Shown piece after piece: positions 19,403 to 38,487 of a stretch of 56,630 bases of DNA (positions within the stretch are counted from its first letter, which is position 1; the number at the start of each line of letters is the position of its first letter). Position numbers and translations under genes: made by a program. The notes below the pieces were generated by a model, which saw only the letters and a list, made by a program, of their open reading frames with translations, had not been told where the DNA came from and searched no databases. Source of the DNA: Oscillospiraceae bacterium (GTDB taxonomy: Bacteria > Bacillota > Clostridia > Oscillospirales > Oscillospiraceae); contig SVLE01000007.1 in NCBI GenBank assembly GCA_015068065.1, positions 1 through 56,630 of the forward strand, given 5' to 3'.

Positions 19403-19429
19403 GAAAATTGCACGTTTGCGTACACCAAT
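19403..19429 (-). promoter_or_regulatory. 27-base element shared with the phage operon, copy A
   Basis: Exactly identical over 27 bases to 38461-38487, in the same orientation, with looser similarity about 18 bases further toward the gene. It contains an imperfect dyad TGCACG-TTTG-CGTACA (19409-19424). It lies 62 bases before the start of the tail-fibre-like gene. Probable regulator binding site or special promoter. Confidence 0.6.
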
Positions 19430-19460
19430 TTGGGAAACAAATTAAAAATTTTACACAACA

Positions 19461-19499
19461 AAGAATCCGGCTGTGGGAAACTCCCACAGCCGGATTCTT
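19461..19499 (-). terminator. Terminator of rpiB
   Basis: A perfect 18-bp stem (19461-19478, 19482-19499) with loop AAC. On the minus strand, T- and A-rich sequence follows. Confidence 0.85.
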
Positions 19500-19512
19500 G
19501 TCGAGACAAACT

Positions 19513-19950
19513 TTACTCCTCCAGAGCGGAGATGCCGTCTACTCGGCGCTGGTGACGGCCACCCTCGAACTCGGTAGTCAGGAAGGTGGCCACGATGCGC
19601 TCGGCCATGTTGGGGCCGGTCATGCCCGCGCCCATAGCCAGCATGTTGGCGTTGTTGTGGCGGCGGGTCATTTCGGCAGACAGGGGCTCGGAACACAGGG
19701 CACAGCGGATGCCCTTGATCTTGTTTGCGGAGATGGAGATACCGATGCCGCTGGTGCAGATGACGATGCCCTTTTCACAGCTTCCGTCCGCCACAGCACG
19801 GGCGGCGGCGGCGCCAAACTGAGGGTAGTCGCAGCTGTCCAGACTATGGCAACCAAAGTCTTTCACCTCGTGGCCCTGTTCGGTCAGGTACTTCTTCACG
19901 TGCTCCTTAAGCAGATAGCCGCCGTGATCGCAGCCCATAGAAATAATCAT
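19513..19950 (-). CDS. rpiB: Ribose 5-phosphate isomerase B
   Basis: A 145-residue RpiB/LacAB-type sugar isomerase that interconverts ribose 5-phosphate and ribulose 5-phosphate. It has the N-terminal GCDHGGYLLKEHV and the active-site segment KGIVICTSGIGISISANKIKGIRCALC, with the catalytic cysteine in CTSGIG. HNNANMLAMGAGM is the conserved later motif. AAAGGAGG precedes the ATG at 19950. It follows the PHP phosphatase gene by 23 bases on the same strand, forming a two-gene operon. Confidence 0.93.
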   Translation of the reverse strand: MIISMGCDHGGYLLKEHVKKYLTEQGHEVKDFGCHSLDSCDYPQFGAAAARAVADGSCEKGIVICTSGIGISISANKIKGIRCALCSEPLSAEMTRRHNNANMLAMGAGMTGPNMAERIVATFLTTEFEGGRHQRRVDGISALEE

Positions 19951-19973
19951 GTGTAAATCCTCCTTTATGTGTA

Positions 19974-20774
19974 TCAAAGCGGTATGAATTCCGGCTTGCG
20001 CCGGCGGAATACGGTGTGGTAGCGGAAGCCCAGATCCCGCAGCAGGTCGGCGGCCTCCCTGATACCAAGGCCGACATGCTGTGCCTCATGAGCATCGGTG
20101 CCAAGGGTGATGATCTCGCCCCCGGCTTGCCGGTACAGCTCCAAAACGGGACGCCACGCATCCACATCCTTGCCCCGGTTGGTGTTTACCTCAATGCCCC
20201 GGCCGTGTTCCACGGCCCGGTTAAGAATGGCACGCAGAGTATCATAATAGGGCTCAAGAGAAATGTCAAATCCGTCCCGCCTCATATAGCGCAACGGATA
20301 AATAATGTGCCCGATCACATCAATTCGATCCGAACCGGCCAGCTTGTACAGACTGGAAAAGTAGTTTTCCAGTGCCCGGTGACAGTCCTCAACGCAGGTA
20401 TAGGGAACGAAGCAGAAATCCTCGCCCCCCATCTCCAGGGCCACATTGTGAGCCGAGCCGATGATCAGGTCCAGCGGGATACCCTTCACGATGTCACTTG
20501 CCCGCTCCGGATAGAACTGAGCTGCGCCCAGCTCAATGCCCAGACGCAGATCAAGGCCCTTGGGACAAGCGGCGAGGGCGGATTCATATTGCTTAAGCAC
20601 AGGTGTCCAGTCCCAGTCGCCTAAAGGCTCGCCATGCCAGCCCAGCAAGTCCAGATGGTCGGTAGTGCACAGCAGGGACAGTCCGGCTTTCGCCGCGGCC
20701 TCTGCCATGGCAGAAAGGGGTGCCTGGCTGTCCCTGGAGCAACAGGTGTGGTTGTGGCAGTCGGCCAGATACAT
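19974..20774 (-). CDS. PHP-domain phosphoesterase, histidinol-phosphatase-like
   Basis: A 266-residue protein of the polymerase-and-histidinol-phosphatase family. Metal ligands are visible in DCHNHTCCSRDS (residues 5-16), TTDHLD near 40, a mid-protein GSAHNV near residue 106, VIGHI, and TLGTDAHEAQHVG near the C-terminus. This set fits the HisK type, which removes phosphate from histidinol phosphate, but no his genes are near and many PHP relatives have other substrates. GGGGAGG precedes the ATG. It is co-transcribed with rpiB from the promoter at 20805-20833. Confidence 0.85.
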   Translation of the reverse strand: MYLADCHNHTCCSRDSQAPLSAMAEAAAKAGLSLLCTTDHLDLLGWHGEPLGDWDWTPVLKQYESALAACPKGLDLRLGIELGAAQFYPERASDIVKGIPLDLIIGSAHNVALEMGGEDFCFVPYTCVEDCHRALENYFSSLYKLAGSDRIDVIGHIIYPLRYMRRDGFDISLEPYYDTLRAILNRAVEHGRGIEVNTNRGKDVDAWRPVLELYRQAGGEIITLGTDAHEAQHVGLGIREAADLLRDLGFRYHTVFRRRKPEFIPL

Positions 20775-20804
20775 GAGATAAACCTCCCCAAATTCGCTTT
20801 TTCT

Positions 20805-20833
20805 ATTGTAGGACGTTTTTCCTGATTTTGCAA
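20805..20833 (-). promoter_or_regulatory. Promoter of the PHP phosphatase-rpiB operon
   Basis: Minus strand TTGCAA (20833-20828), 17-base spacer, TACAAT (20810-20805). Confidence 0.8.
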
Positions 20834-20838
20834 GAAAA

Positions 20839-20869
20839 ATCTACGCCCGGGAGAGCCCCGGGCGTAGAT
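20839..20869 (-). terminator. Terminator of glgP
   Basis: ATCTACGCCCGGG (20839-20851) pairs with 20857-20869; on the minus strand ATTTTTC follows. Confidence 0.88.
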
Positions 20870-20874
20870 CGAAC

Positions 20875-23292: not shown

Positions 23293-23365
23293 AAAGAACC
23301 TCCCGGTTGAAAGAGTATACGTTTCTGAAATAAACGGGTTTTATTAGTATGACCACAGTGGAGCT

Positions 23366-23394
23366 ATTATAGCAAATTTTTTATGTTGCGTCAA
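23366..23394 (-). promoter_or_regulatory. Promoter of glgP
   Basis: Minus strand TTGACG (23394-23389), 17-base spacer, TATAAT (23371-23366). The -35 overlaps the end of the upstream pseudouridine synthase gene. Confidence 0.85.
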
Positions 23395-25633: not shown

Positions 25634-25667
25634 AAGAACCGGGCGGTCTGCAGACCGCCCGGTTCTT
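25634..25667. terminator. Bidirectional terminator between hemW and the phage operon
   Basis: A perfect 34-base palindrome starting AAGAACCGGGCGGTCTG. It follows the hemW stop on the plus strand and the last phage gene stop on the minus strand. Confidence 0.88.
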
Positions 25668-26233
25668 CATCCAACCAGAGTTTCAAATTCTTCCCAGGAC
25701 ATGCCGGTATTCTGTATGTCCTGCCAAATCAGATTTCTTGCGTTCAGTTCGCCCCAGGTCATGTACCAGAACAGGTACTGAATCTGCAGATGGGCCGGCA
25801 GAATATCCTCAATGATTGTACGCAGGGACTCAAACTGAGGTGGTACCCCTTTCAAATTGGGGAAACGAATCGTTACCCCACCTGGAGTTTGTGTCTCTGC
25901 TGCCTCTGCCTTTACTCCGCAGCCGCTGATGGTGTTGTTGATGGCGGACAGGGTAAAGCTGTCCCAGCCGATACGGCTCAGCGCCGAAAGAGAATCCGAC
26001 AACTGCTGCGGGTTTTGCGTTACCGGACGCAGGCCAAACAGTTTTGCGGTTTTGTCCAGCCCGTCCTCACGGGCTGTGGTCAGGCACATTTCCTGTTGGA
26101 TCCGCTCCAGCTCCCGTTCTACCGAGTCAAGGGCCAGACCCATGCAGTCCAGCTCCGCACACAGAAAAGACTCATCCAGCTTGTATACGCCCAAAGGCCG
26201 TAAAAGCTCTTTCATATATGCGGCGTTGCTCAT
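25667..26233 (-). CDS. Phage tail protein, XkdU/YmfQ-like (DUF2313)
   Basis: A 188-residue protein in the last position of the tail module, directly after baseplate J, where PBSX has XkdU. Its content (MKELLRPLGVYKLDESFLCAELDCMGLALDSVERELERIQQEMCLTTA) matches the helical N-terminal pattern of the YmfQ group, which is thought to connect the baseplate to tail fibres. The start overlaps the upstream stop (ATGA at 26233-26230). The gene ends at the shared terminator. No tail-fibre gene follows, which is unusual for this layout. Confidence 0.82.
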   Translation of the reverse strand: MSNAAYMKELLRPLGVYKLDESFLCAELDCMGLALDSVERELERIQQEMCLTTAREDGLDKTAKLFGLRPVTQNPQQLSDSLSALSRIGWDSFTLSAINNTISGCGVKAEAAETQTPGGVTIRFPNLKGVPPQFESLRTIIEDILPAHLQIQYLFWYMTWGELNARNLIWQDIQNTGMSWEEFETLVG

Positions 26234-27276
26234 GTCAGTTCCTCCACAGTCACTGTGCCCAGTACAGGCAGCTGCGCCTTGCTTACAGAAATATCTTCTG
26301 CAGGGGCAATCAGTGTGTAGTTATCCACACTGTCCACGCCGAAGATCAGGCTGCCCAGCTTGGCTCGCAGTACATCCTGCCCCAGCCGTTCCCCGGAGAA
26401 CCATTCTGCAAGCACCTGGTTTACCTGTAGGGTGGCCTGTTCCATATCCGAACTTTTAATTTGGACCTGAACATTTACCGAAACCGGTTCCGGAGGCAGA
26501 ACACGCACATCTACTGCAATTTCTCTGCGTTCCTGAAAGTATTCATTTAGCTGCTCGAGGAGGCTTTGATCGGGGATGCCCTGAGGAGTTGCTGCTACCA
26601 CGTCCACCGTTCCCACTCCACGGTTTCGGGGAAGCGCCACCGCCGCAGCCACACCGTCAAAGGACAGAGCGCTCTGCTCATAAAAAGCGCTGTTGGCCCC
26701 ATTGGGCAGGCGAAGAAAGCTGTCCAGAATACGTTTTCGCAGTTGCTCGTCATCCTCTGCGTCCGTGCCGCCGCTCATGGCCTGAGGATTGGTGCAACCC
26801 GTAATGCCTGTGGGGGCAGCGGACAGGGAACGAATACTGCCGGCGATTACATTGCCGGAACTTCCGGACTCCACTGCCCGGGCGGGAACGTCTGCCCGGG
26901 ATGCCCCGGCAGCCATAACAGCGTCCTGCGTGGTCTCGAACCGCACCAGACCCGATGTCATACAAATGGTCCCGGCGGGAATGAGCCGGTCCACGGTGCT
27001 GGCTGCATCACCGAAAAACCGAATGAAACCCTGCGCCCGGGCAGCGGTTTTTCGTTCCAGTGCGCGCAACTGGGCGTGGTGGTCCAGATATTCACCCTGA
27101 GCTGTTTGAGGGAAGCACTGCCGGTTTACCCAGTCGGCCTGCACATACAGTGCATAAATCTGTGCCGCCGCCGCGTACAGTCGGGCGGACAAATCACCGC
27201 CAAGTGTAATTTCCATACCTGTACGGGTGGTAAAATCCGACTGCATATCGGAATAAAGTTCTTCAACTGTTTTCAT
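26230..27276 (-). CDS. Baseplate J-family protein (XkdT-like)
   Basis: A 348-residue baseplate wedge protein of contractile tails, T4 gp6/P2 gpJ-like. Features are the N-terminal MKTVEELYSDMQSDFTTRTGMEI, the central RLIPAGTICMTSGLVRFETTQDAVMAAG and VESGSSGNVIAGSI region, and the conserved SGGTDAEDDEQLRKRILDSFLRLPNGANSAFYEQ segment. The length is normal. It overlaps the end of the gp25-like gene by 14 bases and is coupled to the last tail gene. It appears intact. Confidence 0.92.
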   Translation of the reverse strand: MKTVEELYSDMQSDFTTRTGMEITLGGDLSARLYAAAAQIYALYVQADWVNRQCFPQTAQGEYLDHHAQLRALERKTAARAQGFIRFFGDAASTVDRLIPAGTICMTSGLVRFETTQDAVMAAGASRADVPARAVESGSSGNVIAGSIRSLSAAPTGITGCTNPQAMSGGTDAEDDEQLRKRILDSFLRLPNGANSAFYEQSALSFDGVAAAVALPRNRGVGTVDVVAATPQGIPDQSLLEQLNEYFQERREIAVDVRVLPPEPVSVNVQVQIKSSDMEQATLQVNQVLAEWFSGERLGQDVLRAKLGSLIFGVDSVDNYTLIAPAEDISVSKAQLPVLGTVTVEELT

Positions 27277-27631
27277 CTGTCAATCCTCCCAAACTTGCGG
27301 TTACTTCCAGTGCCTCGCCCTGCCACTCCAGATTGACCCGTACCTGGGCAGACCGATTTTCTTCGCAGTAGGTCACACCTGTTACGGTCACGTCTTCACC
27401 TTCCAGCGCCTGGTGCACGTATCTGGTGCACAACGCCGGGCGTGCACTTTTCTTTTCTCTGGCCAGCGTGTACAGCAAACTTCCCGTTTCGGGAAGGAAA
27501 GGCAGTGCGCCTCTCCTGGCAGTCAGCTTGAACAGGATCCGCTGAATGAGTGCCTGGCTACCCTCAAGGCGGCAGAAGTCACCGGCTCCGTTTGGAATGT
27601 AATCCCCATTTATCATTTGCAGTTCTGTCAT
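27263..27631 (-). CDS. Baseplate wedge protein, gp25/XkdS-like (DUF2634)
   Basis: A 122-residue protein between the spike and baseplate J genes, the normal place of the gp25-like wedge component that nucleates sheath assembly. The pattern EGSQALIQRILFKLTARRGALPFLPETGSLLYTLA resembles the gp25 core, where an early glutamate-rich region and helix are followed by a P-x-x-G-S-x-L motif. The C-terminal half (VTVTGVTYCEENRSAQVRVNLEWQGE) is the beta sheet. It is complete and coupled to its neighbours. Confidence 0.85.
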   Translation of the reverse strand: MTELQMINGDYIPNGAGDFCRLEGSQALIQRILFKLTARRGALPFLPETGSLLYTLAREKKSARPALCTRYVHQALEGEDVTVTGVTYCEENRSAQVRVNLEWQGEALEVTASLGGLTDENS

Positions 27632-27632
27632 C

Positions 27633-30108: not shown

Positions 30109-30391
30109 CCCGTTTCAAAGACAGGAAATGAGCCTCGTCAAAGCCTGCATTGACGCATCCCTCCGCCAGTGCCAGAGGAACGCCGCACGCCGCGCAGCGC
30201 TCCTCCATGGCCCGTTCCCGACAGGTGGGACACAGACCTGCCAGTTCTTCCTCGTCGTCCAGCATCAGATTCAATGCGCACCACAGAAAATCCCGTGCGG
30301 TCATCGCTCGGACGCGATCTTCCGTGGGCAGGGCTGAAAAGGATCGCAGCACGCGCCAGTACAGCCGCTCTTCCCGGGCGTGCTCCAGACG
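30092..30391 (-). CDS. Second half of the tail assembly chaperone, reached by -1 frameshift
   Basis: This frame is open from the slippery site at 30397-30391 to 30092. It reads sensibly as a continuation of the upstream helix (RLEHAREERLYWRVLRSFSALPTEDRVRAMTARDFLW), followed by two cysteine pairs (CPTC and CAAC). The fused product would be 210 residues: 111 from the zero frame and 99 from this one. Independent starts are possible (GTG at 30352, or ATG at 30304 in an ATGA overlap with the upstream stop), but their ribosome sites are weak. The layout matches gpG/gpGT and gpE/gpE' pairs, whose long form links the tube and tape measure. Confidence 0.75.
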   Translation of the reverse strand, partial: RLEHAREERLYWRVLRSFSALPTEDRVRAMTARDFLWCALNLMLDDEEELAGLCPTCRERAMEERCAACGVPLALAEGCVNAGFDEAHFLSLKRGEAVD

Positions 30392-30723
30392 TTTTTTAAC
30401 TCGTCTATCTGTTCATCTGTGGCATTGAGTCCGGGATTGACCTGTGCATTGAAGCCGGACCATCGTCCGGCGAGGGCTCCAATTTCCTCGGCCGTCATCT
30501 GCTTCAGCACCTGACTTCCGTCCCGGAACTCAGGCCGGCCGTTCCTTAACACAGCCCGCGCAAGCAGGCAAGCGTTGGAACACAGAGCGCGCTCCAGCCC
30601 GTCCCGGGCCAGCCACTGGGCCTCCCTTCTGGCCTCCAGCACCTCCATGGCGCTGAGCAGACGCAGATGTCTGCCGTCCTCCAGCTCCAACTGGGAGGGA
30701 CCGCCTAAAAGACCACTGTGCAT
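30301..30723 (-). CDS. Tail assembly chaperone, short form (XkdN-like)
   Basis: A 140-residue protein directly after the tail tube gene, where PBSX has XkdN. The helical core (LLSAMEVLEARREAQWLARDGLERALCSNACLLARAVL) and the NATDEQIDELKN end resemble tail assembly chaperones. In the zero frame the last 29 residues (VWSTPGKSGCTGACC ...) look unstructured and unlike protein under selection. The heptamer A_AAA_AAC lies in frame at 30397-30391, just before them. The short and frameshifted forms would be made in a set ratio, as known for lambda gpG/gpGT. Confidence 0.78.
   Translation of the reverse strand: MHSGLLGGPSQLELEDGRHLRLLSAMEVLEARREAQWLARDGLERALCSNACLLARAVLRNGRPEFRDGSQVLKQMTAEEIGALAGRWSGFNAQVNPGLNATDEQIDELKNVWSTPGKSGCTGACCDPFQPCPRKIASER
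30391..30397 (-). promoter_or_regulatory. -1 ribosomal frameshift slippery heptamer
   Basis: On the minus strand the zero-frame codons are TTA AAA AAC, giving A_AAA_AAC, a canonical X_XXY_YYZ heptamer. Slippage enters the frame that stays open to 30092. GC-rich sequence follows (CCCGGGAAGAGCGGC), which may add a stimulating structure. Confidence 0.75.
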
Positions 30724-30725: not shown

Positions 30726-31115
30726 TTACACCTCCGTCTCAATGCGCTTGGATGCCACCACTGTGACCTTTTCCATCACCATATTGCCAAGGCCTGCCTC
30801 TTCGTTGATGGCGCTCCACTGACAGTCAGAATAAATGATTCTGCGGTCAGGTTTGCAAATCACCAGCGAGAAGCCCTCCAGAGAATAAAAATCAATCCCG
30901 TCCCGGATCGCGTTGTCTGTGGCATAAAGACGGGACAGCTCCAGCACGTGCTTCACCGGACCGGCGACCGTGGCCACCGGTTCCTTTTCACCAAAGGCCT
31001 CTACCTGTGTGCTGGTTTTGGTTGCTTTGGCGGTATAGCTCTGCACCACAGCTACTTTCGTTCCGTTTACTTCCAGATAAATATCACTGCTGGTGGGAAA
31101 TCCGGTAATCGTCAT
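30726..31115 (-). CDS. Phage tail tube protein (XkdM-like)
   Basis: A 129-residue tail tube protein of the contractile type. It begins MTITGFPTSSDIYLEVNGTKVAVVQSYTAKATKTSTQVEAFGE, a pattern seen in the XkdM/DUF2001 family, and continues with beta strands expected for stacked tube rings. It follows the sheath gene by 12 bases and ends two bases before the chaperone start. The length fits. It appears intact. Confidence 0.9.
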   Translation of the reverse strand: MTITGFPTSSDIYLEVNGTKVAVVQSYTAKATKTSTQVEAFGEKEPVATVAGPVKHVLELSRLYATDNAIRDGIDFYSLEGFSLVICKPDRRIIYSDCQWSAINEEAGLGNMVMEKVTVVASKRIETEV

Positions 31116-31127: not shown

Positions 31128-32189
31128 TTATACCGTGATGTGGGCGCTCAGCCAGATCTGATTGATGCCGTGAGTGACCGTAAAGGCAAAGTCCACCAGG
31201 CACCGGGTAGGATCCTCTTCATCCGCGCGCACACGTACCTGCTCATAACCGGTAATGATCTCGCGGGCCAGCTTGTTTTCCAGCTCCAGCACGACCTGGG
31301 AGCGAATGGCACCCCGGCTCTGCGCCGTGTTTTTTGCCCGGCGGAATCGGCTTTTCAGCGCGTTGCGGATGGTGGGAATCACATCGTCCACAACCAGAAT
31401 GGCGCAAAGGTCTCGCCATGTACTGTCCGCAGCGCCGTTTGTGCTCGTGCGGGTGGTCACACCACGCACCACACTCACAATGCCGCCAACCGACTCCACC
31501 GCGGTTACACCGCCCCGAATCAGCACATCCAACTCTTCTTCGCGCAGCTGCTGATTCAATCCGTTCAGCCCGGTCAGCTGAGCACCGCCCAGAGGCACGG
31601 CGGGATCTGTTTCGCCTGCAATGGCACCGGCCACGGCGGCTGCTACCTGAATCCCGTCCATAGCCGTGCCCTCAGTGCTGATGCAGCCGGGGGCGACCAG
31701 GACCACGCGCTCGCTATTCAGATTTTCGGCCCGTTCCACCAATTCGGACATAGTGGCATTTGCCGTGCCAGCCACCACAGCAATGCGCTCACACTGTGCC
31801 TGGGATGCGGCATGTGCGCTGTCACGCAGTGCCTGCTGCACATCCAGCTGTGTGCTGTCGCACACGATTACCGCCAGATCCTGCGCCGATTCCATGCGGT
31901 CAAAAACGGTCCGGTAATCGCTCAAAGTGTCTCCGGCCACAGGGAATACCATTACCTGCGCCGCGCCGTTCTGAAACAGAAGCTTGGCCAGCTGCGAGGG
32001 GTTGTTCCCTGATTCGACACCAAAGGCAGCGACTGCATCCTGATAGGTGTTGATTGTCCACACGGTCTTTTCGGACTGTTCCATTCTGACGGCCAGACCG
32101 ACATTTTTCTTCCCTGCGCTTCCGCTTACCGCAGAGGAGGCAGCATAGGTGGAATACACCCCCGGCCGCTCATGTACTGTGATGCTCAT
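31128..32189 (-). CDS. Contractile tail sheath protein (XkdK-like), short form
   Basis: A 353-residue sheath protein whose contraction drives the tube outward. The N-terminus (MSITVHERPGVYSTYAASSAVSG) has the ERPGVY motif of sheath proteins. The C-terminal part carries the conserved handshake-type end (YEQVRVRADEEDPTRCLVDFAFTVTHGINQIWLSAHITV). At 353 residues it is about 100 shorter than XkdK, implying loss of outer decoration domains. Its ATG overlaps the upstream stop. Presence of sheath, tube and wedge genes shows a contractile, myovirus-type tail. Confidence 0.93.
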   Translation of the reverse strand: MSITVHERPGVYSTYAASSAVSGSAGKKNVGLAVRMEQSEKTVWTINTYQDAVAAFGVESGNNPSQLAKLLFQNGAAQVMVFPVAGDTLSDYRTVFDRMESAQDLAVIVCDSTQLDVQQALRDSAHAASQAQCERIAVVAGTANATMSELVERAENLNSERVVLVAPGCISTEGTAMDGIQVAAAVAGAIAGETDPAVPLGGAQLTGLNGLNQQLREEELDVLIRGGVTAVESVGGIVSVVRGVTTRTSTNGAADSTWRDLCAILVVDDVIPTIRNALKSRFRRAKNTAQSRGAIRSQVVLELENKLAREIITGYEQVRVRADEEDPTRCLVDFAFTVTHGINQIWLSAHITV

Positions 32190-32683
32190 GTATTGATATC
32201 TCCTCTCAAAGTGAAGTCCAGGAAGGTGCCTGCCTCATCACCCTGAGTGCAAAGCCAACCGATGCACTCCAGGTGACAGCGCAGCCTCAGCAAACCGTCC
32301 TTCCCGTCATATTCCAGTTCTTCGCTGTTCAGCTCCTGTACGCTCAGAGCAATGGGTTTTTCCTTCTGCAGGACCACCAACATGCGGTCAAAAAGCTCCC
32401 GGCAGGCCTGCGCTCCAGTTTCAGGCAGAGACAGAATATCCAGAAGAAAACTCAAGTGCACGCTGTGCCCGTACAGCTCTGTTTCCTGCCCGGTGGCCTC
32501 GTTCACCCACTGGCCCAGATAATTCTGCATGCCCGCCGGGGAACAGGTCATCTTTTCCAAAGAAACGAGGACTCTCGGGCGGCCGGGATCTGTTCTGGGA
32601 TCCTCTGGCCATGAGGCAATTGCATCGATATCCCGCTCGCGGAAAAACTCGGCTAAACGTTCCTGTATTCCATCTGCCTTCAT
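32186..32683 (-). CDS. Tail terminator/completion-like protein, unknown
   Basis: A 165-residue protein between the connector and sheath genes, the place of XkdJ or tail terminator proteins. It reads as a mixed alpha/beta domain (DIDAIASWPEDPRTDPGRPRVLVSLEKMTCSPAG ... HSVHLSFLLDILSLPETGAQACRELFDRMLVVLQ), similar in pattern to minor tail proteins that cap the tube. Its start and stop overlap the neighbours by ATGA. Function is inferred from position. Confidence 0.65.
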   Translation of the reverse strand: MKADGIQERLAEFFRERDIDAIASWPEDPRTDPGRPRVLVSLEKMTCSPAGMQNYLGQWVNEATGQETELYGHSVHLSFLLDILSLPETGAQACRELFDRMLVVLQKEKPIALSVQELNSEELEYDGKDGLLRLRCHLECIGWLCTQGDEAGTFLDFTLRGDINT

Positions 32684-33024
32684 TCGACCACCTCCCGGGT
32701 ACTGGGTGTTAGAACAGCCCAGCGGTAGACAGGCTGTGCCCCCGTATAAATAAGATGCGTCCCCTGCACCTGCAGAACCTGCGACCCCACCTTCACCAGA
32801 CTGACTTCATCCAGACAGGGCTCAGGAGGGCCGAGATATAAGAAACGGTCCTGACTGATCCGGCCCAGGGGAGAGGGAACGGACTGCTCCGTTCCCTTCT
32901 CACGCATAGGCTGAAAAAAAGCGCGCACGCAAACGCCCTCAGGTGCTGCCTGTGTGTATACTGTCATATCCTGACCATATCGGGTCAGAATACGGGAGAA
33001 ACTTCCCTGTATCAATGTCTTCAC
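32680..33024 (-). CDS. Head-tail connector/minor capsid protein (XkdI-like)
   Basis: A 114-residue beta-rich protein (FSRILTRYGQDMTVYTQAAPEGVCVRAFFQPMREKG) whose size and order match the small adaptor proteins that follow gp6-like connectors. The ERPG-like phage end ends in TPSTREVVE. Starts and stops overlap adjacent genes by four bases. Function comes mainly from gene order. Confidence 0.68.
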   Translation of the reverse strand: MKTLIQGSFSRILTRYGQDMTVYTQAAPEGVCVRAFFQPMREKGTEQSVPSPLGRISQDRFLYLGPPEPCLDEVSLVKVGSQVLQVQGTHLIYTGAQPVYRWAVLTPSTREVVE

Positions 33025-33374
33025 ACTCCATAGAACAAAAACCGCTGATCCTTTGTCCAGGCAGACATCAGCTGCTTTGCCTGCCCACGCAGCAGCCTGG
33101 CCTTTTGGGCTGCGTTGCCTTGCTGAACAGTCACGTCGCCGGCCCGAAAGGACTCCGCCTGTCCGGCCTCACGGCTGATCTCCAGCCCTGCCAGTGCAAG
33201 CCATGCCCCGGCCAGAGCAAAGGCTTCCGGGCAGTCACCGGGGCAAACATCATCCCGCAGTGCTGCGGTCAGTTCCGTTTGCGCCGCGGCACACAGGGTC
33301 GCCAGAAGCTCCTCTTCCTGCTCGGCGGTCTGGCCCAGGGTGCGGGCCAGTTCCATTATGCGCTGGGTCATCAC
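33021..33374 (-). CDS. Head-tail connector, gp6/XkdH-like
   Basis: A 117-residue helical protein (MTQRIMELARTLGQTAEQEEELLATLCAAAQTELTAALRDDVCPGDCPEAFALAGAWLALAGLE) with the helix pattern of gp6/YqbG-type connectors that form the ring beneath the portal. It lies just after the capsid gene, with ATGA overlap on both sides. Position and helix pattern support it; no motif is diagnostic. Confidence 0.72.
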   Translation of the reverse strand: MMTQRIMELARTLGQTAEQEEELLATLCAAAQTELTAALRDDVCPGDCPEAFALAGAWLALAGLEISREAGQAESFRAGDVTVQQGNAAQKARLLRGQAKQLMSAWTKDQRFLFYGV

Positions 33375-34384
33375 ACGCTCAGCACCTTGGACGCATCGGG
33401 GAACAGCTTGGCAAAGCCGCTGATGCTGGTGATGGCGGCGCGTTCCAGCTGACGGTCGATGAGTTTGTCGTACTCGATCATCACGTCGCTGCCCTGCACC
33501 ATCTCCAGTGCATAGTTGCGATCCAGACCGATGATCTTGCCCTCGGGCAGGGCGGAGGTGCGCAGCAGCGTGGCACCCAGGGGGGTGGTCAGCTTGCCGG
33601 TGCCCTGGAAATTCAGACCGGTCATGGGGTTCTGGAACTCGGGCAGCTTGAGCATCTTGACCATCATGTCATTGCTCACCAGCAGGGTATTCATCTCATA
33701 GGGATCAAATTTGGCCCAGAAGTCCACCAGATCCTCATAGGTCAGCGTGCCGCCGGAGGAAACGGAGTACTCCTGCGCAGCATTGCCGTTGCCGTCGCCG
33801 TTGATGAGCACCTCAATGGCGTCCTCCAGATGCATGCGGTTGATGTGGGCACCAATCTGGCGCAGGGTCACAGAGAACAGATCCAGCTTCTGATAGCGAA
33901 TGGCCTCATAGGAAGCCACCAGCATACGGCCGCGCTTGTGAAGCTTGACCAGATTGTCCTGAACCTTCACCGTGGTGCTGGGGATGACTGCACCCTCCTC
34001 CACATGGCGCAGCTTCTTGTCCTCGCCGCCGGCTTCGGTGGTGATGGAGCGGTAATCCATGCCGTCAAAGCGAGTCACCGCGGCGGTAATGGCGGGCAGC
34101 AGGTTCTGCTCCTCCATGCCCTGACGCACACTGCGGGCGATGTACTCGGGGAAGAGTACAGCGGAGTCGGCGGTGCGGAAGAACTTCTCCACCACGTCGC
34201 TGCCTGCACCCTTCACCTTGATGTCAAAACGCTTGAGCTGACGCTGAAAGGCGTCCAGACCCTCCAGCGCAGTGCCCTTGTACTGCTGGTCGGGGTCCAT
34301 GCTTTCCAGCACCTGAGTAAAGCTCTTGCCCGCCTCATGGTACATACCCTTCTCCAGCTTCAGATTGTCAAACTGATATGCCAT
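33371..34384 (-). CDS. Major capsid protein (XkdG-like)
   Basis: A 337-residue capsid protein, HK97-fold type. The N-terminal helix (GKSFTQVLESMDPDQQYKGTALEGLDAFQRQLKRFDIKVKG) may act as a scaffold. The spine region (TRFDGMDYRSITTEAGG ... IPSTTVKVQDNLVKLHKRGRMLVASYEAIRYQKLDLF) and the later P-domain strand (GATLLRTSALPEGKIIGLDRNYALEMVQGSDVMIEYDKLIDRQ) are characteristic of XkdG-like capsids. GGAGG precedes the ATG. It is full-length and intact. Confidence 0.92.
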   Translation of the reverse strand: MAYQFDNLKLEKGMYHEAGKSFTQVLESMDPDQQYKGTALEGLDAFQRQLKRFDIKVKGAGSDVVEKFFRTADSAVLFPEYIARSVRQGMEEQNLLPAITAAVTRFDGMDYRSITTEAGGEDKKLRHVEEGAVIPSTTVKVQDNLVKLHKRGRMLVASYEAIRYQKLDLFSVTLRQIGAHINRMHLEDAIEVLINGDGNGNAAQEYSVSSGGTLTYEDLVDFWAKFDPYEMNTLLVSNDMMVKMLKLPEFQNPMTGLNFQGTGKLTTPLGATLLRTSALPEGKIIGLDRNYALEMVQGSDVMIEYDKLIDRQLERAAITSISGFAKLFPDASKVLSV

Positions 34385-34397
34385 CCTTTTTTCCTCC

Positions 34398-34736
34398 TTA
34401 CAGACAAATTACGGCGGTGTTTTTCACCGTGTCAACTTCGGCAACCAGAACGGTGATGCCGTCGCCGGTCTTCACGCCGCCCTTGCCGTCAGCCACCAGA
34501 CTGACCATGCCCACACTCAGGGGCATGGTAGCGGGTACGCTGACAAAACCACCAACCTGAACACCGGCAATACCGGCTCGGGGCATTCCGGCCACACCGC
34601 AGAAGAGGTCGCCTGCACTGCAGGGGCCCACGGTGCCGTTTCCGGTCATCTTGACCACCTGACCGCCCTGCACACCCTCTTCGATATAAAAGGTGGCCAT
34701 CAGGTTGCCAATGTCCTCAAAAGAAATCTTGCTCAT
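34398..34736 (-). CDS. Capsid decoration/stabilising protein
   Basis: A 112-residue protein between prohead protease and capsid genes, the usual place of the head decoration protein. It is beta-rich and glycine-rich (GGQVVKMTGNGTVGPCSAGDLFCGVAGMPRAGIAGVQVGGFVSVPATMPLSVGMVSLVADGKGGVKTGDG), like lambda gpD/DUF2190-type proteins. The start is the ATG at 34736, nine bases after AGGAGG; 14 further in-frame codons upstream have no ribosome site. Confidence 0.78.
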   Translation of the reverse strand: MSKISFEDIGNLMATFYIEEGVQGGQVVKMTGNGTVGPCSAGDLFCGVAGMPRAGIAGVQVGGFVSVPATMPLSVGMVSLVADGKGGVKTGDGITVLVAEVDTVKNTAVICL

Positions 34737-34774
34737 GTGTGTTTCCTCCTGTTTTAATATGAGTTCGGTTCCGC

Positions 34775-35698
34775 TCAAATCAAAAACGCGCCGTCAGCAC
34801 CGCCGACCGCCGCAGTCTGCGTGTGATGCTCCAGTTGGGTCATCACAGGAAAACGCTTGGCAGCCTGTCCGCCGTAGACACGCTTCAATTCCAGCAGTTC
34901 CGATTCCTCCAGTTTTTCGGCGATGCGCTCCATCATCCGGTGATCCACATCGTCCTTGCTCAGTCCGCACAGGCGGACCACCTCCCGGCGCAGCCCGGCC
35001 AGGTACTTTCTGCCCAGAGCGGCCTCCTGTTCCAGACAATCCAGCTCATTCTGACAGCCGTGTTTCAGTGCCAGCTGCTTCAGAGTCAGGCTCTTTCCTT
35101 TTGTTTTCATTACCCCGGCCTTGGGTTGAGCGGGAACGGCCACGAAGGACCATTCAAAAGCATCCACCGCACCTTCCAGCTTGGTGTAGCACAGCTTGTT
35201 CTCGTATCGCTCACCCTTCTTGTGAGAACAGCTGCCTGCCTGTTTGCCGCAGATGGAACACACTGAACGGCCTACCGCGCAGCCTACACTGACCTCTTTC
35301 AGGATACCGCCCTCCAGTTGAGCGATCAGCTCCTCGTTGCCCGGGGTGCGCAGAATGTACGCATAGCCCTTTACATAGCGTCCGGGATCACCAACCGCGG
35401 TCAGTACGCCGGGCTCATCCACCACCTCGGTCCGATAGATCCGGGCCGTCTGGCCCGCTGCGGCCCAATTGTGGTCGAAGATGCCGGTCTTGCCCACGAA
35501 AAGTTCCGCCAGTCCGTCCAGTGTGTCGTTTTCAAAGCGCTCTGCGTCACGGTCCACCTCGTTGTCGCACAGCCGTACGGCAAAGGTATACACCTCATCA
35601 GCCGTTAGCTGTTTTCGGCTGAAGCGGTTGATCTGACTCAACTCCTGCTCATCCACCGCGGCGGTGCCGCCGCAGTGGGCCTGCTTGTTTACGTTCAT
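34775..35698 (-). CDS. Prohead protease/scaffold protein (XkdF-like)
   Basis: A 307-residue protein between portal and decoration genes. The first 200 residues resemble phage prohead proteases (QINRFSRKQLTADEVYTFAVRLCDNEVDRDAERFE ... LFVGKTGIFDHNWAAAGQTARIYRTEV), with a histidine in GIFDHNW as candidate catalytic residue. A cysteine cluster CSICGKQAGSCSHKKGE could bind zinc. The helical C-terminus may act as scaffold. The ATG at 35698 overlaps the portal stop (ATGA); a longer frame upstream has no start support. I am surer of the family position than of activity. Confidence 0.8.
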   Translation of the reverse strand: MNVNKQAHCGGTAAVDEQELSQINRFSRKQLTADEVYTFAVRLCDNEVDRDAERFENDTLDGLAELFVGKTGIFDHNWAAAGQTARIYRTEVVDEPGVLTAVGDPGRYVKGYAYILRTPGNEELIAQLEGGILKEVSVGCAVGRSVCSICGKQAGSCSHKKGERYENKLCYTKLEGAVDAFEWSFVAVPAQPKAGVMKTKGKSLTLKQLALKHGCQNELDCLEQEAALGRKYLAGLRREVVRLCGLSKDDVDHRMMERIAEKLEESELLELKRVYGGQAAKRFPVMTQLEHHTQTAAVGGADGAFLI

Positions 35699-36837
35699 TC
35701 TTCTGCCTCCGCTTTCAGATTGTCCGCCTGACGGCGGTAAAGTTCTGCCCTGGCCTCTTCCACCTGGTCCTGCAGGTTGATGTCGGCCCATACCACCTGA
35801 ACGCTGCCTCCCCAGCCATGTACGCGCAGCCAGGTCTCGCAGATGCGCTCCACCACCGGCTCCAGGCTACGTCGAATCGCGGTGATCTCGCTGGTCATCA
35901 GATCGGCCTGTTGACTGCTCATGCGCTCCGTGGAGGACCAGGAAAGCCCCAGCATAAAGGGCGGGATCCCCGTGCGGGCGATCAGCTGCTCTAAAATCTG
36001 ACGCACAGGCACTTCACTGTCCAGAATCTGGTTGTCTGCACCGATAACCCGGATATCCACATCCCCCATAGCTACAAAGTCCCGTACACCGCCCTGACCG
36101 GACGTCTGCATGGCCCGGCTCCACTCGCTTGCTACCTGCTCGCAGCGTTCCTGGGCATACAACTCATCGCCATCCGTGTTTTTGCAAACCACGGCAAAGC
36201 GCACATTGCCCACCCGTTCCCAGTTCAGTCCGATGGCCTGATAAATTTTCAGCAGAATCTCCGCCATAAAAGGCATGGAGCGCAGCAAAGAAACACCGTA
36301 GGGGCTTCCGGCTTCCGGCTGGAGGGGAGTGAACAGCAGTAGTTCCTGACAGGGGAGGGGTTCAGGCTGTCCCGTTGTGCGCAGGCATAGACGGAAATCC
36401 AGCGGTGTTTCGCCATCCAGAATTTCCACGTGTTCTGGATCGCACCACAGCAGTGCGGCAATCTCACGCCCTTCGCAGTCGGGGACGATCTCGCCCACGG
36501 CCCGGCCGCAGGTAAACAGGCAGTCCAGATATCCGTCCAAAAAAGCCTGAATTCCCCGCTGCCCCCGACCTGCGGGCACGGATTTGAGGAATCGATTCAT
36601 TTCATCCTGTGCCCGAGGTTCCTCGCACAGGACACTGACACCGCCGCACAGGCGGATCAGTTTCAGAATAGCTGCGTCCACAATGGGCACAGCCTCACGA
36701 ATGGCCCGGTAGATCTGGCTTTCGCCGCCTTGGAGAGGGATATACTGCTGCAACGGGCCGAAGGGGTGTCCGGTGGTATTGCGCACCTGAACCGCGGCTC
36801 CCTGCACCTTGGGCGATTTCCTTTGAAAAAACTTCAT
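35695..36837 (-). CDS. Phage portal protein (XkdE-like)
   Basis: A 380-residue portal, the dodecameric ring through which DNA enters the head. YRAIREAVPIVDAAILKLIRLCGGV and GSPYGVSLLRSMPFMAEILLKIYQAIGLNWERVGNVRF match portal proteins of the XkdE group; the stem-like helix and the late RMSSQQADLMTSEITAIRRSLEPVVERICE helix are present. It follows the terminase by 15 bases, with AAAGGAG before the ATG. It is somewhat shorter than typical portals of over 450 residues but has no visible breaks. Confidence 0.9.
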   Translation of the reverse strand: MKFFQRKSPKVQGAAVQVRNTTGHPFGPLQQYIPLQGGESQIYRAIREAVPIVDAAILKLIRLCGGVSVLCEEPRAQDEMNRFLKSVPAGRGQRGIQAFLDGYLDCLFTCGRAVGEIVPDCEGREIAALLWCDPEHVEILDGETPLDFRLCLRTTGQPEPLPCQELLLFTPLQPEAGSPYGVSLLRSMPFMAEILLKIYQAIGLNWERVGNVRFAVVCKNTDGDELYAQERCEQVASEWSRAMQTSGQGGVRDFVAMGDVDIRVIGADNQILDSEVPVRQILEQLIARTGIPPFMLGLSWSSTERMSSQQADLMTSEITAIRRSLEPVVERICETWLRVHGWGGSVQVVWADINLQDQVEEARAELYRRQADNLKAEAEE

Positions 36838-36852
36838 CCGTGTTTCTCCTTT

Positions 36853-38112
36853 TTACATTCTGTTGCGCCGGTACACACTTCCGGCAAAGGTGGGTACGTC
36901 ATGTGTTCCTGGTCCGGCGATGGTCGCGGCGAAATACCGGATGTCGTCCATGGCATGATCATCCTGTTTGCGGACGCGATCCTGTGAGCCGTCCTCGTCC
37001 CATCGGTACAGGCCAAACTCACGTATGGCATCCGGACAGCTGTTGCAAATCACCAATGAGCCGTTTTGCAGCAGCCGGGCCGTAGTCCGTATTCCGGACA
37101 ACACGTCATTTTTTGCCTTGACCACACTCCAACCTTCTCGCCGCAGTAGCTCGATAAAGCTGGCGGCCGACGGATCCACCACCACCTGTCGGATCCGCCT
37201 TCCTCCTGCCAGGCGGGCCAGCTCTCGGGCATACTCCTGATCTGTCTTTTGTTGGCCCTGACTTCGCGAGTCGTAGTAATACTCCGCTACCCGGTACCAA
37301 ACTCCATCCAGCAGCCCCCAGAGACCGAAGGATGCCGGATTGACCGTGCCATAATCACAGGAGATATACCAGCTCTCTATTTCTCCTTCCGGCGGTGGGG
37401 GGCAGGCTTCCTTTTGGAAAAAGTCGTACACAAGCCCTTGTGCCGCCACCCATTCTCCCAACACGAATCTACGGTAAAAGTTTCCCTGAAACATGGTTTC
37501 GTAGCGTGCTCGGATCCGGGGAGACAGGGAGGGGTTATCTGCCATTGTGAAGTGGAGATATAGGACATTCCGGTGTTCTTTTCGACAGATCCACTCCCTG
37601 TAGAACCAGTGCTCCGGGCCTTCCGGATTGCAGGAAAACCAAAGTTTTGCCCCTTCCACCGAACAGCGGGCACAGGCCTGCTCCACGAAGGAGCGGGGCA
37701 TAAGTACTACCTCATCCAGCAGCACCCCAGCCAGTGTCAGTCCCTGAATCAGATCGGCGCTCCCCTCGTCCTTTCCACCGAACAGATAGAACACATTCTC
37801 GCGCCCGCCCAGCCGTACAGTGAGTTGATTGCGTGAGACCTGTTCCAGGCACTCAAAACCCAGCTGTTTCAGCAGTGGCAGCTGTTCCCGCAGCAGGTTG
37901 CGCCGCACAGACTGTATGGTCTTTCCACACAGGGCAAACCCCTGTCCGTTAAAGCACGTCATGGCCCAAAAAAGAAAGGAAAGACCCATACAAAGTGTCT
38001 TGCCACTGCGCACAGCCCCGTCACAGATTACGGCATCGTGATGCCGGTCGTCTTTGCGGCACCACCACAGTAACAGCCGTTTCTGCTTGGGAGAAAATGT
38101 TTTGACTTCCAC
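36853..38112 (-). CDS. Terminase large subunit (XtmB-like)
   Basis: A 419-residue DNA-packaging motor. The ATPase part has Walker A (GAVRSGKT, residues about 32-39) and Walker B (LAGVLLDEVVLM). The RNase H-like nuclease part keeps its acidic residues: SCDYGTVNP, VVDPSA and DDHAMDD. All key residues are intact, which argues for a working packager. Translation starts at GTG 38112, with AAGGA upstream, six bases after the small-subunit stop. No cos or pac site can be recognised. Confidence 0.93.
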   Translation of the reverse strand: MEVKTFSPKQKRLLLWWCRKDDRHHDAVICDGAVRSGKTLCMGLSFLFWAMTCFNGQGFALCGKTIQSVRRNLLREQLPLLKQLGFECLEQVSRNQLTVRLGGRENVFYLFGGKDEGSADLIQGLTLAGVLLDEVVLMPRSFVEQACARCSVEGAKLWFSCNPEGPEHWFYREWICRKEHRNVLYLHFTMADNPSLSPRIRARYETMFQGNFYRRFVLGEWVAAQGLVYDFFQKEACPPPPEGEIESWYISCDYGTVNPASFGLWGLLDGVWYRVAEYYYDSRSQGQQKTDQEYARELARLAGGRRIRQVVVDPSAASFIELLRREGWSVVKAKNDVLSGIRTTARLLQNGSLVICNSCPDAIREFGLYRWDEDGSQDRVRKQDDHAMDDIRYFAATIAGPGTHDVPTFAGSVYRRNRM

Positions 38113-38117
38113 CTGCT

Positions 38118-38426
38118 TCAGCCGTCCTTCTGGCCCTGTTCCAGAAAAGCCCGCAAGAACTGCTCCCCTCCGGAGGGCTTGTCACCCTCCAGCAGTTCCA
38201 GCACCTTTTCCAGTACCGCCAGCCGATCTGCCAGCTTGATTTCCACCGCCCCGGAGGGGCTGCGCTTGAACTCGGTCAGAGCAGACAGATCCAGCCCGGC
38301 CAGTTCATCCGCCTGCTCTTCTGACAGGTAGGCCAACCGTACCGCATCATTGACCCTGACCTGAGCGATGTCGCACATTTTCTGTAAAACTTCATCCCGG
38401 GTGGGAGCCCTCGATTGTTTTCCCAT
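38118..38426 (-). CDS. Terminase small subunit (XtmA-like)
   Basis: A 102-residue protein at the head of the phage operon. It has a helical DNA-recognition N-terminus (TRDEVLQKMCDIAQVRVNDAVRLAYLSEEQADELAGLDLSALTEFK) and a C-terminal helix for oligomerisation. In place of a typical helix-turn-helix it is short, about half the PBSX XtmA length. The ATG at 38426 follows GAGGTGG; a GTG at 38435 is an alternative start. It starts 34 bases behind the shared 27-base element, so this is the operon's first gene. Confidence 0.78.
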   Translation of the reverse strand: MGKQSRAPTRDEVLQKMCDIAQVRVNDAVRLAYLSEEQADELAGLDLSALTEFKRSPSGAVEIKLADRLAVLEKVLELLEGDKPSGGEQFLRAFLEQGQKDG

Positions 38427-38460
38427 AAATTCCACCTCACACTAATGGTAGGATTGGGGT

Positions 38461-38487
38461 GAAAATTGCACGTTTGCGTACACCAAT
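38461..38487 (-). promoter_or_regulatory. 27-base element shared with the tail-fibre-like gene, copy B
   Basis: Identical over 27 bases to 19403-19429. The dyad TGCACG-TTTG-CGTACA is at 38467-38482. It lies directly before the terminase genes on the minus strand. A plus-strand promoter reading (TTGCGT near 38475 with an AT-rich -10) for the divergent carboxypeptidase is also possible. Confidence 0.6.

What the first reader, a model, noticed from the sequence alone, without database searches (positions are those of the whole stretch)
19403..38487. Identical 27-base element before the terminase operon and before the lone tail-fibre-like gene
Bases 19403-19429 and 38461-38487 are identical and equally oriented, each just upstream of a minus-strand phage-type gene, with looser similarity continuing toward each gene (about 18 bases ending near ATTA). 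The core is an imperfect dyad TGCACG-TTTG-CGTACA. No other copy was seen in the window. This looks like a shared operator or activator-dependent promoter tying two transcription units, 19 kb apart, into one phage-derived regulon.
Basis: partly seen in the sequence, partly recalled or inferred. Interest (0 to 1): 0.78.

Follow-up and report, generated by a model that had tools for sequence, protein, structure and literature searches.

The report
Promoter code for scattered phage-like particle
A short DNA element shared by two phage-derived genes turns out to mark a scattered set of genes in gut bacteria that appear to be switched on together to build a phage-like particle, its exchangeable tail fibres and possible toxins, which makes a candidate gene-transfer or killing particle directly testable.

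Summary
The 27-mer is identical at both places. Its 16-bp dyad TGTACGCAAACGTGCA has five exact copies in the 1.68-Mb assembly and none at 1-2 mismatches. They precede the terminase-capsid-contractile-tail operon, the fibre gene, two paralogous 568-aa ORFs (effector-like by inference; no family match) and a mini-MuF/DUF6883-like gene. The operon shows no replication or lysogeny genes. It was found in 55 of 61 sampled genomes of the genus (54 with one match), with kept gene order in 40 of 40 fetched loci, dacA divergent beside it in 37 of 40, low dN/dS and an intact-looking large terminase. A related element precedes the small-terminase gene in most family loci scored and 49 of 60 fibre genes examined. 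In genome-wide scans it lies mostly at these genes, with no match to the reversed pattern and none in five genomes lacking the operon. Best reading: a conserved promoter element of a dispersed regulon for a domesticated PBSX/GTA-like particle. A 2026 paper saw GTA-like DNA packaging in an Oscillospiraceae genus but reports no operon there; this is a candidate. Not shown: transcription, trans-acting factor, particles, DNA packaging, toxicity. Whether it transfers DNA, kills, or both is open.

The parts
19403..19429 (-). element copy 1 (dyad core 19409-19424), upstream of the fibre-like gene
19383..19402 (-). downstream block of copy 1 (C-rich TCCTCCC followed by TATTAT), at the same spacing as in the other promoters
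   Evidence: 8 of 25 columns identical in 4 promoters; 4 of 20000 random offsets reach that
18834..19340 (-). fibre-like protein, 168 aa; N-terminal part shared with a family of fibre-like proteins (invariant L..Q....D.....DFN.DN...D), variable C-terminus; the name 'fibre' is by sequence pattern, no strong family match
   Evidence: (phrog_33092, E 0.0008, unknown function)
38461..38487 (-). element copy 2 (dyad core 38467-38482), upstream of the terminase-capsid-tail operon
38441..38460 (-). downstream block of copy 2 (TCCTACC then ATTAGT)
38118..38435 (-). small terminase subunit (probable start ATG at 38426); matches only Terminase_2 positions 60-128 (22.1 bits, below the cut-off 26.1)
36853..38112 (-). 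large terminase subunit, PBSX family (TIGR01547, 185.7 bits against cut-off 105)
35695..36837 (-). portal protein
   Evidence: phrog_30703, 2e-158
34775..35698 (-). protein of unknown function in the head gene block (phrog_16951)
34398..34736 (-). virion structural protein (phrog_4588)
33371..34384 (-). major capsid protein (phrog_3922; Pfam Phage_capsid_4)
32186..33374 (-). three small ORFs in head-tail joining position (117, 114, 165 aa)
   Evidence: only the 165-aa ORF matches, phrog_25177, unknown function
31128..32189 (-). contractile tail sheath
   Evidence: phrog_279, 5e-41
30726..31115 (-). protein in tail-tube position (phrog_27038, unknown function)
29590..30723 (-). 140-aa and 172-aa ORFs where chaperone and tape measure would be expected
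   Evidence: no family match
29005..29568 (-). LysM tail protein
28055..29008 (-). baseplate hub
   Evidence: phrog_177
27263..28043 (-). two baseplate-region proteins (136 aa, phrog_25991 unknown; 122 aa, phrog_975 baseplate)
26230..27276 (-). baseplate wedge (gpJ-like)
   Evidence: phrog_6, 1e-76
25667..26233 (-). tail protein (gpI-like by position), last gene of the operon
   Evidence: phrog_521
38533..39717 (+). host dacA-like D-Ala-D-Ala carboxypeptidase, divergent neighbour of the operon here and in 37 of 40 genus loci

Best explanation
The 27-mer is the conserved core of a promoter-type regulatory element that co-controls a dispersed, phage-derived regulon. The regulon's centre is a domesticated, vertically inherited, PBSX/GTA-like operon (terminase, portal, capsid, contractile tail). 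Fibre genes, probable effector/partner gene pairs and, in one related genome, a holin-like gene sit elsewhere on the chromosome behind copies of the same element. Shown by sequence: the element, its positions, its genome-wide specificity and its conservation. Inferred: a dimeric DNA-binding protein (a late activator, less likely an alternative sigma factor or a repressor) recognises TTGYACG-N4-CGTRCAAC, with an asymmetric right-hand extension (CAAYTTTT at the terminase genes) facing the gene, and switches all units on together so that head, tail, fibres and cargo are made at once. The particle then packages host DNA (GTA-like), kills rivals (tailocin-like), or both.
For: (1) Five exact copies in the own assembly, at the operon, the fibre, two 568-aa ORFs and a mini-MuF-like gene. 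(2) Four of these promoters, ahead of unrelated genes, share a second block at fixed spacing: 8 of 25 columns identical, reached by 4 of 20000 random offsets. (3) Ahead of the small terminase T-R-C-A-A-C-W-T is invariant in 34 of 36 genus loci with a TerS hit; of the other two, L068 is cut off and L061 has no good match. In 62 scored loci of the wider set, which overlaps the first, 46 hold the strict right half. (4) 49 of 60 fibre upstream regions (60 of 122 fibre matches, 12 genomes) match TGTAYNNNAACRTNCNAC with at most 1 mismatch, against 0 of 600 dinucleotide shuffles and 2 of 60 on the other strand. (5) Genome-wide exact TGTAYNNNAACGTNCNAC: 69 sites in 16 of 27 operon-positive genomes, 0 in 5 operon-negative, 0 for the reversed pattern; 52 at fibres, 3 at DUF6291 genes, 4 at the operon, 1 at a gene like the 102-aa partner. 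(6) Terminase pattern at 1 mismatch: 30 sites in 17 of 32 genomes, 0 in the 5 operon-negative, 0 reversed. (7) Operon in 55 of 61 sampled genus genomes, 54 with one match; order kept in 40 of 40 fetched loci, dacA divergent within 1.1 kb of TerL in 37; dN/dS 0.03-0.21; TerL motifs in 97-99 of 99. (8) Homologues of the 568-aa ORF carry a version of the element in G074 and G032 and none was seen in operon-negative G064. (9) Family sample: 23 matches at 20 distinct places in 15 of 120 genomes, 0 reversed; downstream, by eye, 6 terminase, 1 holin-like, 1 fibre-like, 1 mini-MuF-like and 1 fibre-operon-like gene.
Against: No transcription, binding, particle or DNA-packaging data. No trans-acting factor found: the CRP/FNR HTH family is in 16 of 16 genomes tried, the 5 operon-negative included; the DUF6291 gene is absent from the window's genome. 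In several lineages the fibre version (CGTCCCAC) differs from the terminase version (CGTRCAAC), so one factor for both is not certain; a matrix trained on terminase sites finds only 20 of 60 fibre regions. G032 (L061), a close relative, has no good match ahead of TerS, and the G012 fibres have only a distant version. 11 of 60 fibre regions did not match within 1 mismatch, and that pattern was tuned on the same regions. 11 of 27 operon-positive genomes have no exact match to the strict pattern. Sites without a recognised regulon gene: 9 of 69 (4 looked at, 5 not); 4 of the 6 sites looked at (L487, L498, L501, L505); 10 of 20 places; several of the 1-mismatch dyad matches in relatives (for example L017, L022, L024, and L021/L026 at replication-initiator-like genes). 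At 2 mismatches the reversed pattern gives 3 matches against 18. Operon-negative G060 has a fibre match and a DUF6291 gene. The 568-aa ORFs have no PHROG or NCBIfam match and only a sub-threshold peptidoglycan-binding match.
Confidence: 0.75

Rival explanations
1. The operon is an ordinary (defective or active) prophage and the element its late promoter, with the fibre gene a stray piece of the same prophage.
For: All recognised structural genes are phage-type. One IMG/VR relative lies on a 54,950-base contig of which only 20 kb was held and which was not checked for replication genes.
Against: Found in 55 of 61 sampled genus genomes, 54 with one match, dacA divergent beside it in 37 of 40, no integrase, repressor or replication family among the operon proteins searched, low dN/dS. 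73 of the 80 IMG/VR contigs kept are about 4-14.3 kb long.
Confidence: 0.08
2. Same regulon, but the particle is a killing device (PBSX/tailocin-like, with head-borne or co-released toxins) rather than a gene transfer agent.
For: Three of five units in this genome are effector- or toxin-like by inference, with small partner genes. The C-terminus of the 568-aa protein differs between species while residues 1-338 are shared. TerL is PBSX family. Large fibre repertoires fit strain targeting.
Against: TerL ATPase and nuclease motifs are kept in 97-99 of 99 sequences, which a pure tailocin would not need. GTA-like DNA packaging has been reported in this family (PMC12946183). Toxin activity is untested, and DUF6883 is below the Pfam cut-off in this genome (25.1 against 27 bits).
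Confidence: 0.4
3. The dyad is a repressor operator overlapping the promoter, so the regulon is held off and released on a signal.
For: Perfectly palindromic copies exist in related genera; the dyad sits where a -35 region could be.
Against: The sites examined at regulon genes are in one orientation, with an asymmetric conserved extension towards the gene and a second block at fixed spacing; no good sigma-A hexamers were seen by eye (no promoter scan was run).
Confidence: 0.2
4. The element acts as an RNA hairpin in the leader.
For: TGYACG-N4-CGTRCA can form a short stem. The aligned TerS start lies 20-30 nt after the 18-nt core in the 34 loci.
Against: At the one varying pair examined, 29 of 61 loci form a standard RNA pair. 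The right half is invariant while the left half decays. At fibres with at most 1 mismatch the distance to the gene runs from 43 to about 310 nt.
Confidence: 0.06
5. Shared upstream DNA is only a by-product of gene duplication or recombination of fibre cassettes.
For: Fibre genes within one genome often share longer upstream stretches.
Against: The same element precedes unrelated genes (terminase, fibre, 568-aa ORF, mini-MuF-like, DUF6291), with conservation concentrated in the element and a fixed-spacing block.
Confidence: 0.06

Closest known systems
FpGTA of Faecalibacterium (Borodovich et al. 2026, PMC12946183; abstract, sections 9, 10 and 26 read, other passages by word search)
   Same: Gut Oscillospirales; [quoted passage not shown] The paper also saw GTA-like packaging in an Oscillospiraceae genus (Onthomonas sp., 3 of 25 events).
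   Different: FpGTA is described as podovirus-like; this operon encodes sheath, baseplate hub and wedge of a contractile tail. The paper's main text has 0 occurrences of 'promoter' and of 'contractile', and the sections read name no Oscillospiraceae operon.
PBSX of Bacillus subtilis (recalled, apart from the TerL family)
   Same: TerL is of the PBSX family; the order terminase-portal-capsid-sheath-tube-LysM-hub-gp25-gpJ-gpI is the xkd order (recalled).
   Different: Fibre genes are scattered instead of following the operon; the tape-measure slot is small; the regulator is unknown (PBSX uses Xpf, recalled).
RcGTA of Rhodobacter capsulatus with its direct activator GafA (PMC6363796; passages seen)
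   Same: Structural cluster, head spikes, tail fibre and lysis genes are upregulated together; one HTH-type activator binds the cluster promoter and the lysis promoter.
   Different: Unrelated bacterial group; here the cis element is known and the trans factor is not; many alternative fibre genes.
MuF polymorphic toxins of temperate phages (PMC5576092; search listing and start of abstract only)
   Same: Cys/His segment resembling the C-terminal part of phage head-morphogenesis proteins joined to DUF6883, with a small partner gene.
   Different: Stand-alone short gene away from the head operon, behind the particle's promoter element; the head-morphogenesis match is weak (E 0.003).

Membership tests
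Gene transfer agent (GTA) | phage-type head and tail structural cluster | tested here: met
Gene transfer agent (GTA) | no replication, integration or lysogeny genes; flanked by host genes | tested here: met
   operon proteins; dacA on one side; a radical-SAM/HemN-like gene and, by eye, a pseudouridine-synthase-like gene on the other
Gene transfer agent (GTA) | vertical inheritance: single copy, syntenic, intact, purifying selection | tested here: met
   55 of 61 sampled genus genomes, 54 with one match; order kept 40 of 40, dacA divergent 37 of 40; dN/dS 0.03-0.21; TerL motifs 97-99 of 99. No gene tree against a species tree was made
Gene transfer agent (GTA) | small terminase lacking the DNA-binding part (as the paper states for FpGTA) | tested here: met
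   of 10 TerS proteins scanned: window, L330, L333, L335, L336 match Terminase_2 only from position 46-64 on; L321, L323, L332 from position 1-3; L324 and L328 no match. That the missing part is the DNA-binding part is recalled. Some genera of the same family keep an N-terminal extension (by eye)
Gene transfer agent (GTA) | particles package random host DNA of fixed small size | not testable with these tools
   needs particle purification and long-read sequencing
Gene transfer agent (GTA) | particles transfer genes to recipients | not testable with these tools
   bench test
PBSX-like element | PBSX-family large terminase | tested here: met
   TIGR01547 185.7 bits against cut-off 105
PBSX-like element | fibre and lysis genes in the same operon (recalled) | tested here: not met
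   operon ends at the gpI-like gene; the fibre gene is 6 kb away behind host genes
PBSX-like element | Xpf-type sigma factor drives the late promoter; SOS induction (recalled) | not tested
   no search for Xpf homologues or SOS boxes was run
MuF polymorphic toxin | MuF head domain followed by a variable toxin domain | tested here: inconclusive
   phrog_8089 E 0.003, no Pfam MuF match; DUF6883 25.1 bits (cut-off 27) in the own gene, 28.8 in homologue L131
Class II activator promoter (CRP/FNR type, recalled geometry) | dyad centred at -41.5 with a sigma-A -10 box | tested here: inconclusive
   holds if the TTTATA-like boxes of fibre/effector promoters are -10 boxes, but in the terminase promoters the ribosome-binding site lies where that start would fall

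The most novel reading that the evidence does not exclude
Across the Oscillospiraceae one promoter code assembles, from genes scattered around the chromosome, a domesticated contractile phage-like particle with an exchangeable set of fibres and toxin cargo: a hybrid of gene transfer agent and toxin-delivery particle in which DNA and protein toxins travel together and fibre choice sets the target.
Probability: 0.3. Interest if true: 0.92.

Novelty: new variant of a known kind. Interest (0 to 1): 0.8.

Why it matters
It offers a candidate gene cluster family for the GTA-like DNA packaging seen in gut Oscillospiraceae (PMC12946183), for which that paper reports no operon. Cultured strains carry it (record titles: Pseudoflavonifractor capillosus An827, P. 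phocaeensis An858, Flintibacter muris DSM 110149, Flavonifractor sp. An100, Oscillibacter valericigenes An907), so it can be tested. The element gives a handle to fish out the regulator and to read much of the particle's parts list, fibres and probable cargo included, directly from genome sequence. It also suggests that gut virus catalogues hold slices of this operon that may be bacterial (320 relatives found in IMG/VR, 80 kept, 73 of these about 4-14.3 kb).

Tried and rejected
DUF6291 protein as the activator: rejected, absent from the window's genome (13 of 32 genomes have it), although at least 10 of the 13 genes carry the element (8, 2 more). CRP/FNR family as the activator (TGTA-N8-TRCA resembles their sites, recalled): uninformative, present in 16 of 16 genomes including 5 operon-negative. 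Sigma-54 promoter: considered on paper and rejected, because the GG-N10-GC spacing (recalled) does not fit. Exact class II geometry: not adopted, because the aligned TerS start lies 20-30 nt after the 18-nt core, so a start at the distance implied by fibre/effector promoters would cut off the ribosome-binding site. PDB relatives of tube, sheath and capsid: none at E 0.01; the LysM protein matches LysM domains only. Element in other families of the order: no convincing copy ahead of TerL in the 14 of 15 loci L320-L334 that could be scored (L329 could not); best 3-6 mismatches; L333 and L334 share a different dyad 591 and 612 nt upstream of TerL. The three same-family loci L335-L337 have matches at 2-3 mismatches. 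Prior art: paper searches, judged from titles and starts of abstracts, listed no paper describing this operon or element apart from PMC12946183 on the packaging; lists were cut (12 of 1,503; 10 of 111; 8 of 16). One query of my gene set ('dec', the virion structural protein) was one base out of frame and is not used.


Full report
What was claimed and what is there. Both copies are present and identical, with looser similarity over 41 nt. In the window's own assembly (71 contigs, 1,675,278 bases, 87.6% complete) the dyad TGTACGCAAACGTGCA occurs five times exactly and never at 1 or 2 mismatches; the eight 3-mismatch matches are at the level of the reversed control (13 matches in all against 11).

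The five units. Besides the two in the window, copies lie on contig 41 ahead of a 568-aa ORF and a 155-aa ORF, on contig 71 ahead of a paralogous pair (83% identical in the large ORF), and on contig 59 ahead of an ORF that joins a short Cys/His segment like the end of head-morphogenesis proteins (phrog_8089, E 0.003) to DUF6883 (25.1 bits, cut-off 27), followed by a 102-aa ORF. The 568-aa, 155-aa and 102-aa proteins have no family match above a cut-off; 'effector' and 'partner' are inferences. The operon is TerS, TerL, portal, head proteins, major capsid protein, sheath, tube-position protein, LysM protein, hub and wedge proteins. No replication or lysogeny family was found among its proteins. 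It is flanked by host genes: dacA on one side; a radical-SAM/HemN-like gene and, by eye, a pseudouridine-synthase-like gene on the other.

Conservation of the operon. The capsid protein is found in 55 of 61 genomes sampled from the genus (the own genome included), at 74-90% identity over nearly the full length in the others except one partial match (92% over 73 residues), without internal stops; one genome shows two matches. In the order 23 of 197 sampled genomes have it, three of them only weakly (E 1e-8 or worse, or mixed). Forty genus loci were fetched, of 54 other genomes with a match. The order of 13 operon genes is kept in 40 of 40 as far as each contig reaches (all 13 present in 31), and dacA is divergent beside the operon in 37, its start 188-1090 nt from the TerL match. 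A scan of the 84,980-species collection gave 517 loci, of which the best 80 were kept; titles that name a genus or family say Oscillospiraceae, Lawsonibacter, Pseudoflavonifractor, Flavonifractor, Flintibacter, Intestinimonas or Oscillibacter (one says Clostridium), others say only Clostridiales, Clostridia, Firmicutes, Bacillota or bacterium. That the window's genus is GTDB Lawsonibacter is my inference from contigs of equal length in the two collections (for example G018, G062, G010, G020, G022). dN/dS for eight genes against two relatives and seven against a third is 0.03-0.21; one further value was invalid (internal stop in L240) and is not used. TerL Walker and nuclease motifs, by loose patterns, are present in 97-99 of 99 long TerL sequences; two stops well inside a gene (L240 TerL, L312 hub) were found among 120 loci, and seven others lie within the last 12 residues of a match; some genomes are in the set twice. 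TerS in the window matches only the later part of Terminase_2; of ten TerS scanned, five are of this short kind, three cover the family from its start and two do not match.

The element ahead of the terminase. Of 36 genus loci with a TerS hit, 34 have the invariant right half T-R-C-A-A-C-W-T while the left half varies; L061 (G032) has no good match and L068 is cut off. L060, L062 and L063 (the same contigs as L242, L243 and L241) have no recognisable TerS but show an element by eye; L072 could not be scored. In the 62 scorable loci of the wider set, which overlaps the genus set, 37 have GTRCAACWT and 9 more TRCAACTT; most of the remaining 16 show variants by eye. Dyad mismatch counts are 0-3 in 49 of 62, against 38 of 1240 mononucleotide shuffles. 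In related genera perfect palindromes occur, for example TTGTACG-CAAA-CGTACAA twice in G348.

The element ahead of fibres and other genes. A profile finds 1-13 fibre matches per genome in 26 of 27 operon-positive genomes (none in G062; a few genes are split into two matches or match only in part). Of five operon-negative genomes three have none, G068 one weak partial match and G060 one clear match. Of 60 fibre upstream regions fetched (of 122 matches, 12 genomes), 49 match TGTAYNNNAACRTNCNAC with at most 1 mismatch, against 0 of 600 dinucleotide shuffles and 2 of 60 on the other strand; the pattern was tuned on these regions. A terminase-trained matrix alone passes in 20 of 60 (2 of 60 on the other strand), because many fibres carry a CGTCCCAC variant. 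Genome-wide scans do not depend on the choice of regions. The exact pattern TGTAYNNNAACGTNCNAC gives 69 sites in 16 of 32 genomes, none in the five operon-negative and none reversed. 52 are within 420 nt upstream of a fibre match, 3 at DUF6291 genes, 3 at the operon; of 11 others one is the operon and one precedes a homologue, by eye, of the 102-aa partner; 4 looked at and 5 not looked at remain unassigned. The terminase pattern at 1 mismatch gives 30 sites in 17 of 32 genomes, again none in the operon-negative genomes or reversed; I looked downstream of six of the less obvious ones: two are the operon, four are unassigned. At 2 mismatches in eight genomes it gives 18 sites against 3 reversed. 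The first scan with the own dyad at 1 mismatch found it in 9 of 60 genomes, the own included, 0 reversed; several of those matches are not at recognised regulon genes. Across 120 genomes drawn from the family, TTGYACGNNNNCGTRCAACTT at 1 mismatch gives 23 matches at 20 distinct places in 15 genomes, 0 reversed. Downstream, by eye, are six terminase genes, one holin-like gene, one fibre-like, one mini-MuF-like and one relative of a fibre-region protein; ten places are unassigned.

Effector-like proteins. The 568-aa protein has relatives in 3 of 31 other genomes tried. In G032 and G064 only residues 1-336 or 1-338 match and the C-terminus differs, the pattern of polymorphic toxins; G074 also has a separate C-terminal fragment nearby. 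G074 and G032 carry, by eye, a version of the element just upstream; none was seen in operon-negative G064.

How it may work. Four promoters of unrelated genes in this genome share, besides the dyad, a C-rich block and an AT-rich block at fixed spacing (8 of 25 columns; 4 of 20000 random offsets). The terminase and fibre sites are oriented one way, with an asymmetric extension. This fits a promoter recognised by a dimeric factor next to RNA polymerase. If the AT-rich block of fibre and effector promoters is a -10 box, the dyad centre is near -41.5, the place of class II activators (recalled); but ahead of TerS the ribosome-binding site begins there, so the start must be nearer, or another sigma factor is used. 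I commit to 'activator-dependent or alternative-sigma promoter', the first more likely. The trans factor was not found.

Comparison. A 2026 study (PMC12946183; abstract and sections 9, 10, 26 read) found GTA-like packaging in Ruminococcaceae and Oscillospiraceae and an operon, FpGTA, in Faecalibacterium, described as podovirus-like; it searched an Onthomonas genome too and names a candidate operon only in Faecalibacterium. The present operon is contractile, PBSX-family by TerL, found in many Oscillospiraceae, and tied to scattered fibres and effector-like genes by a readable element. RcGTA offers the nearest regulatory parallel: one HTH activator, GafA, on cluster and lysis promoters (PMC6363796, passages). 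Membership as a GTA is met on the genomic features tested but lacks the functional ones.

Noticed in passing
window 29590-30301: The tape-measure slot before the LysM gene holds only a 172-aa ORF without family match, suggesting a very short contractile tail (tail length follows tape-measure length, recalled).
   Followed up: partly
L241, L242, L243 (same contigs as L060, L062, L063), upstream of TerL: The small terminase is missing or unrecognisable while an element and TerL are kept, in three close relatives.
   Followed up: partly
L137-L149: A solitary DUF6291 gene (in G063, L129, between a sporulation-sigma-like and a ZIP-transporter-like gene, by eye) carries the element in at least 10 of the 13 genomes that have it.
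   Followed up: partly
L339-L418 and MT835769.1 (L338): Virus collections hold many slices of this operon labelled viral (80 kept of 320 in IMG/VR; 4 of the 80 include dacA); they may be bacterial genome fragments.
   Followed up: partly
L240, TerL: The large terminase gene of the nearest relative in the named collection (98% in the capsid protein) has an in-frame stop near codon 49; assembly error or decay not decided.
   Followed up: no
L471 (G022:C8:38846): An exact fibre-type element followed by a transposase-like ORF (by eye) instead of a fibre gene.
   Followed up: no
L333, L334 (another family of the order): Two species share a different dyad, TTAAACG-AAAA-CGTATAAC, 591 and 612 nt upstream of TerL; possibly that family's own version of the element.
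   Followed up: no
L021, L026 (G021): Copies of the palindrome TTGTACG-like element (TGTACGCAAACGTACA) lie ahead of replication-initiator-like HTH_36 genes, which do not fit the particle regulon.
   Followed up: no
window 42015-42048 and 1587-1635: A 24-nt near-perfect palindrome, and a 21-nt perfect inverted repeat with a 7-nt loop.
   Followed up: no
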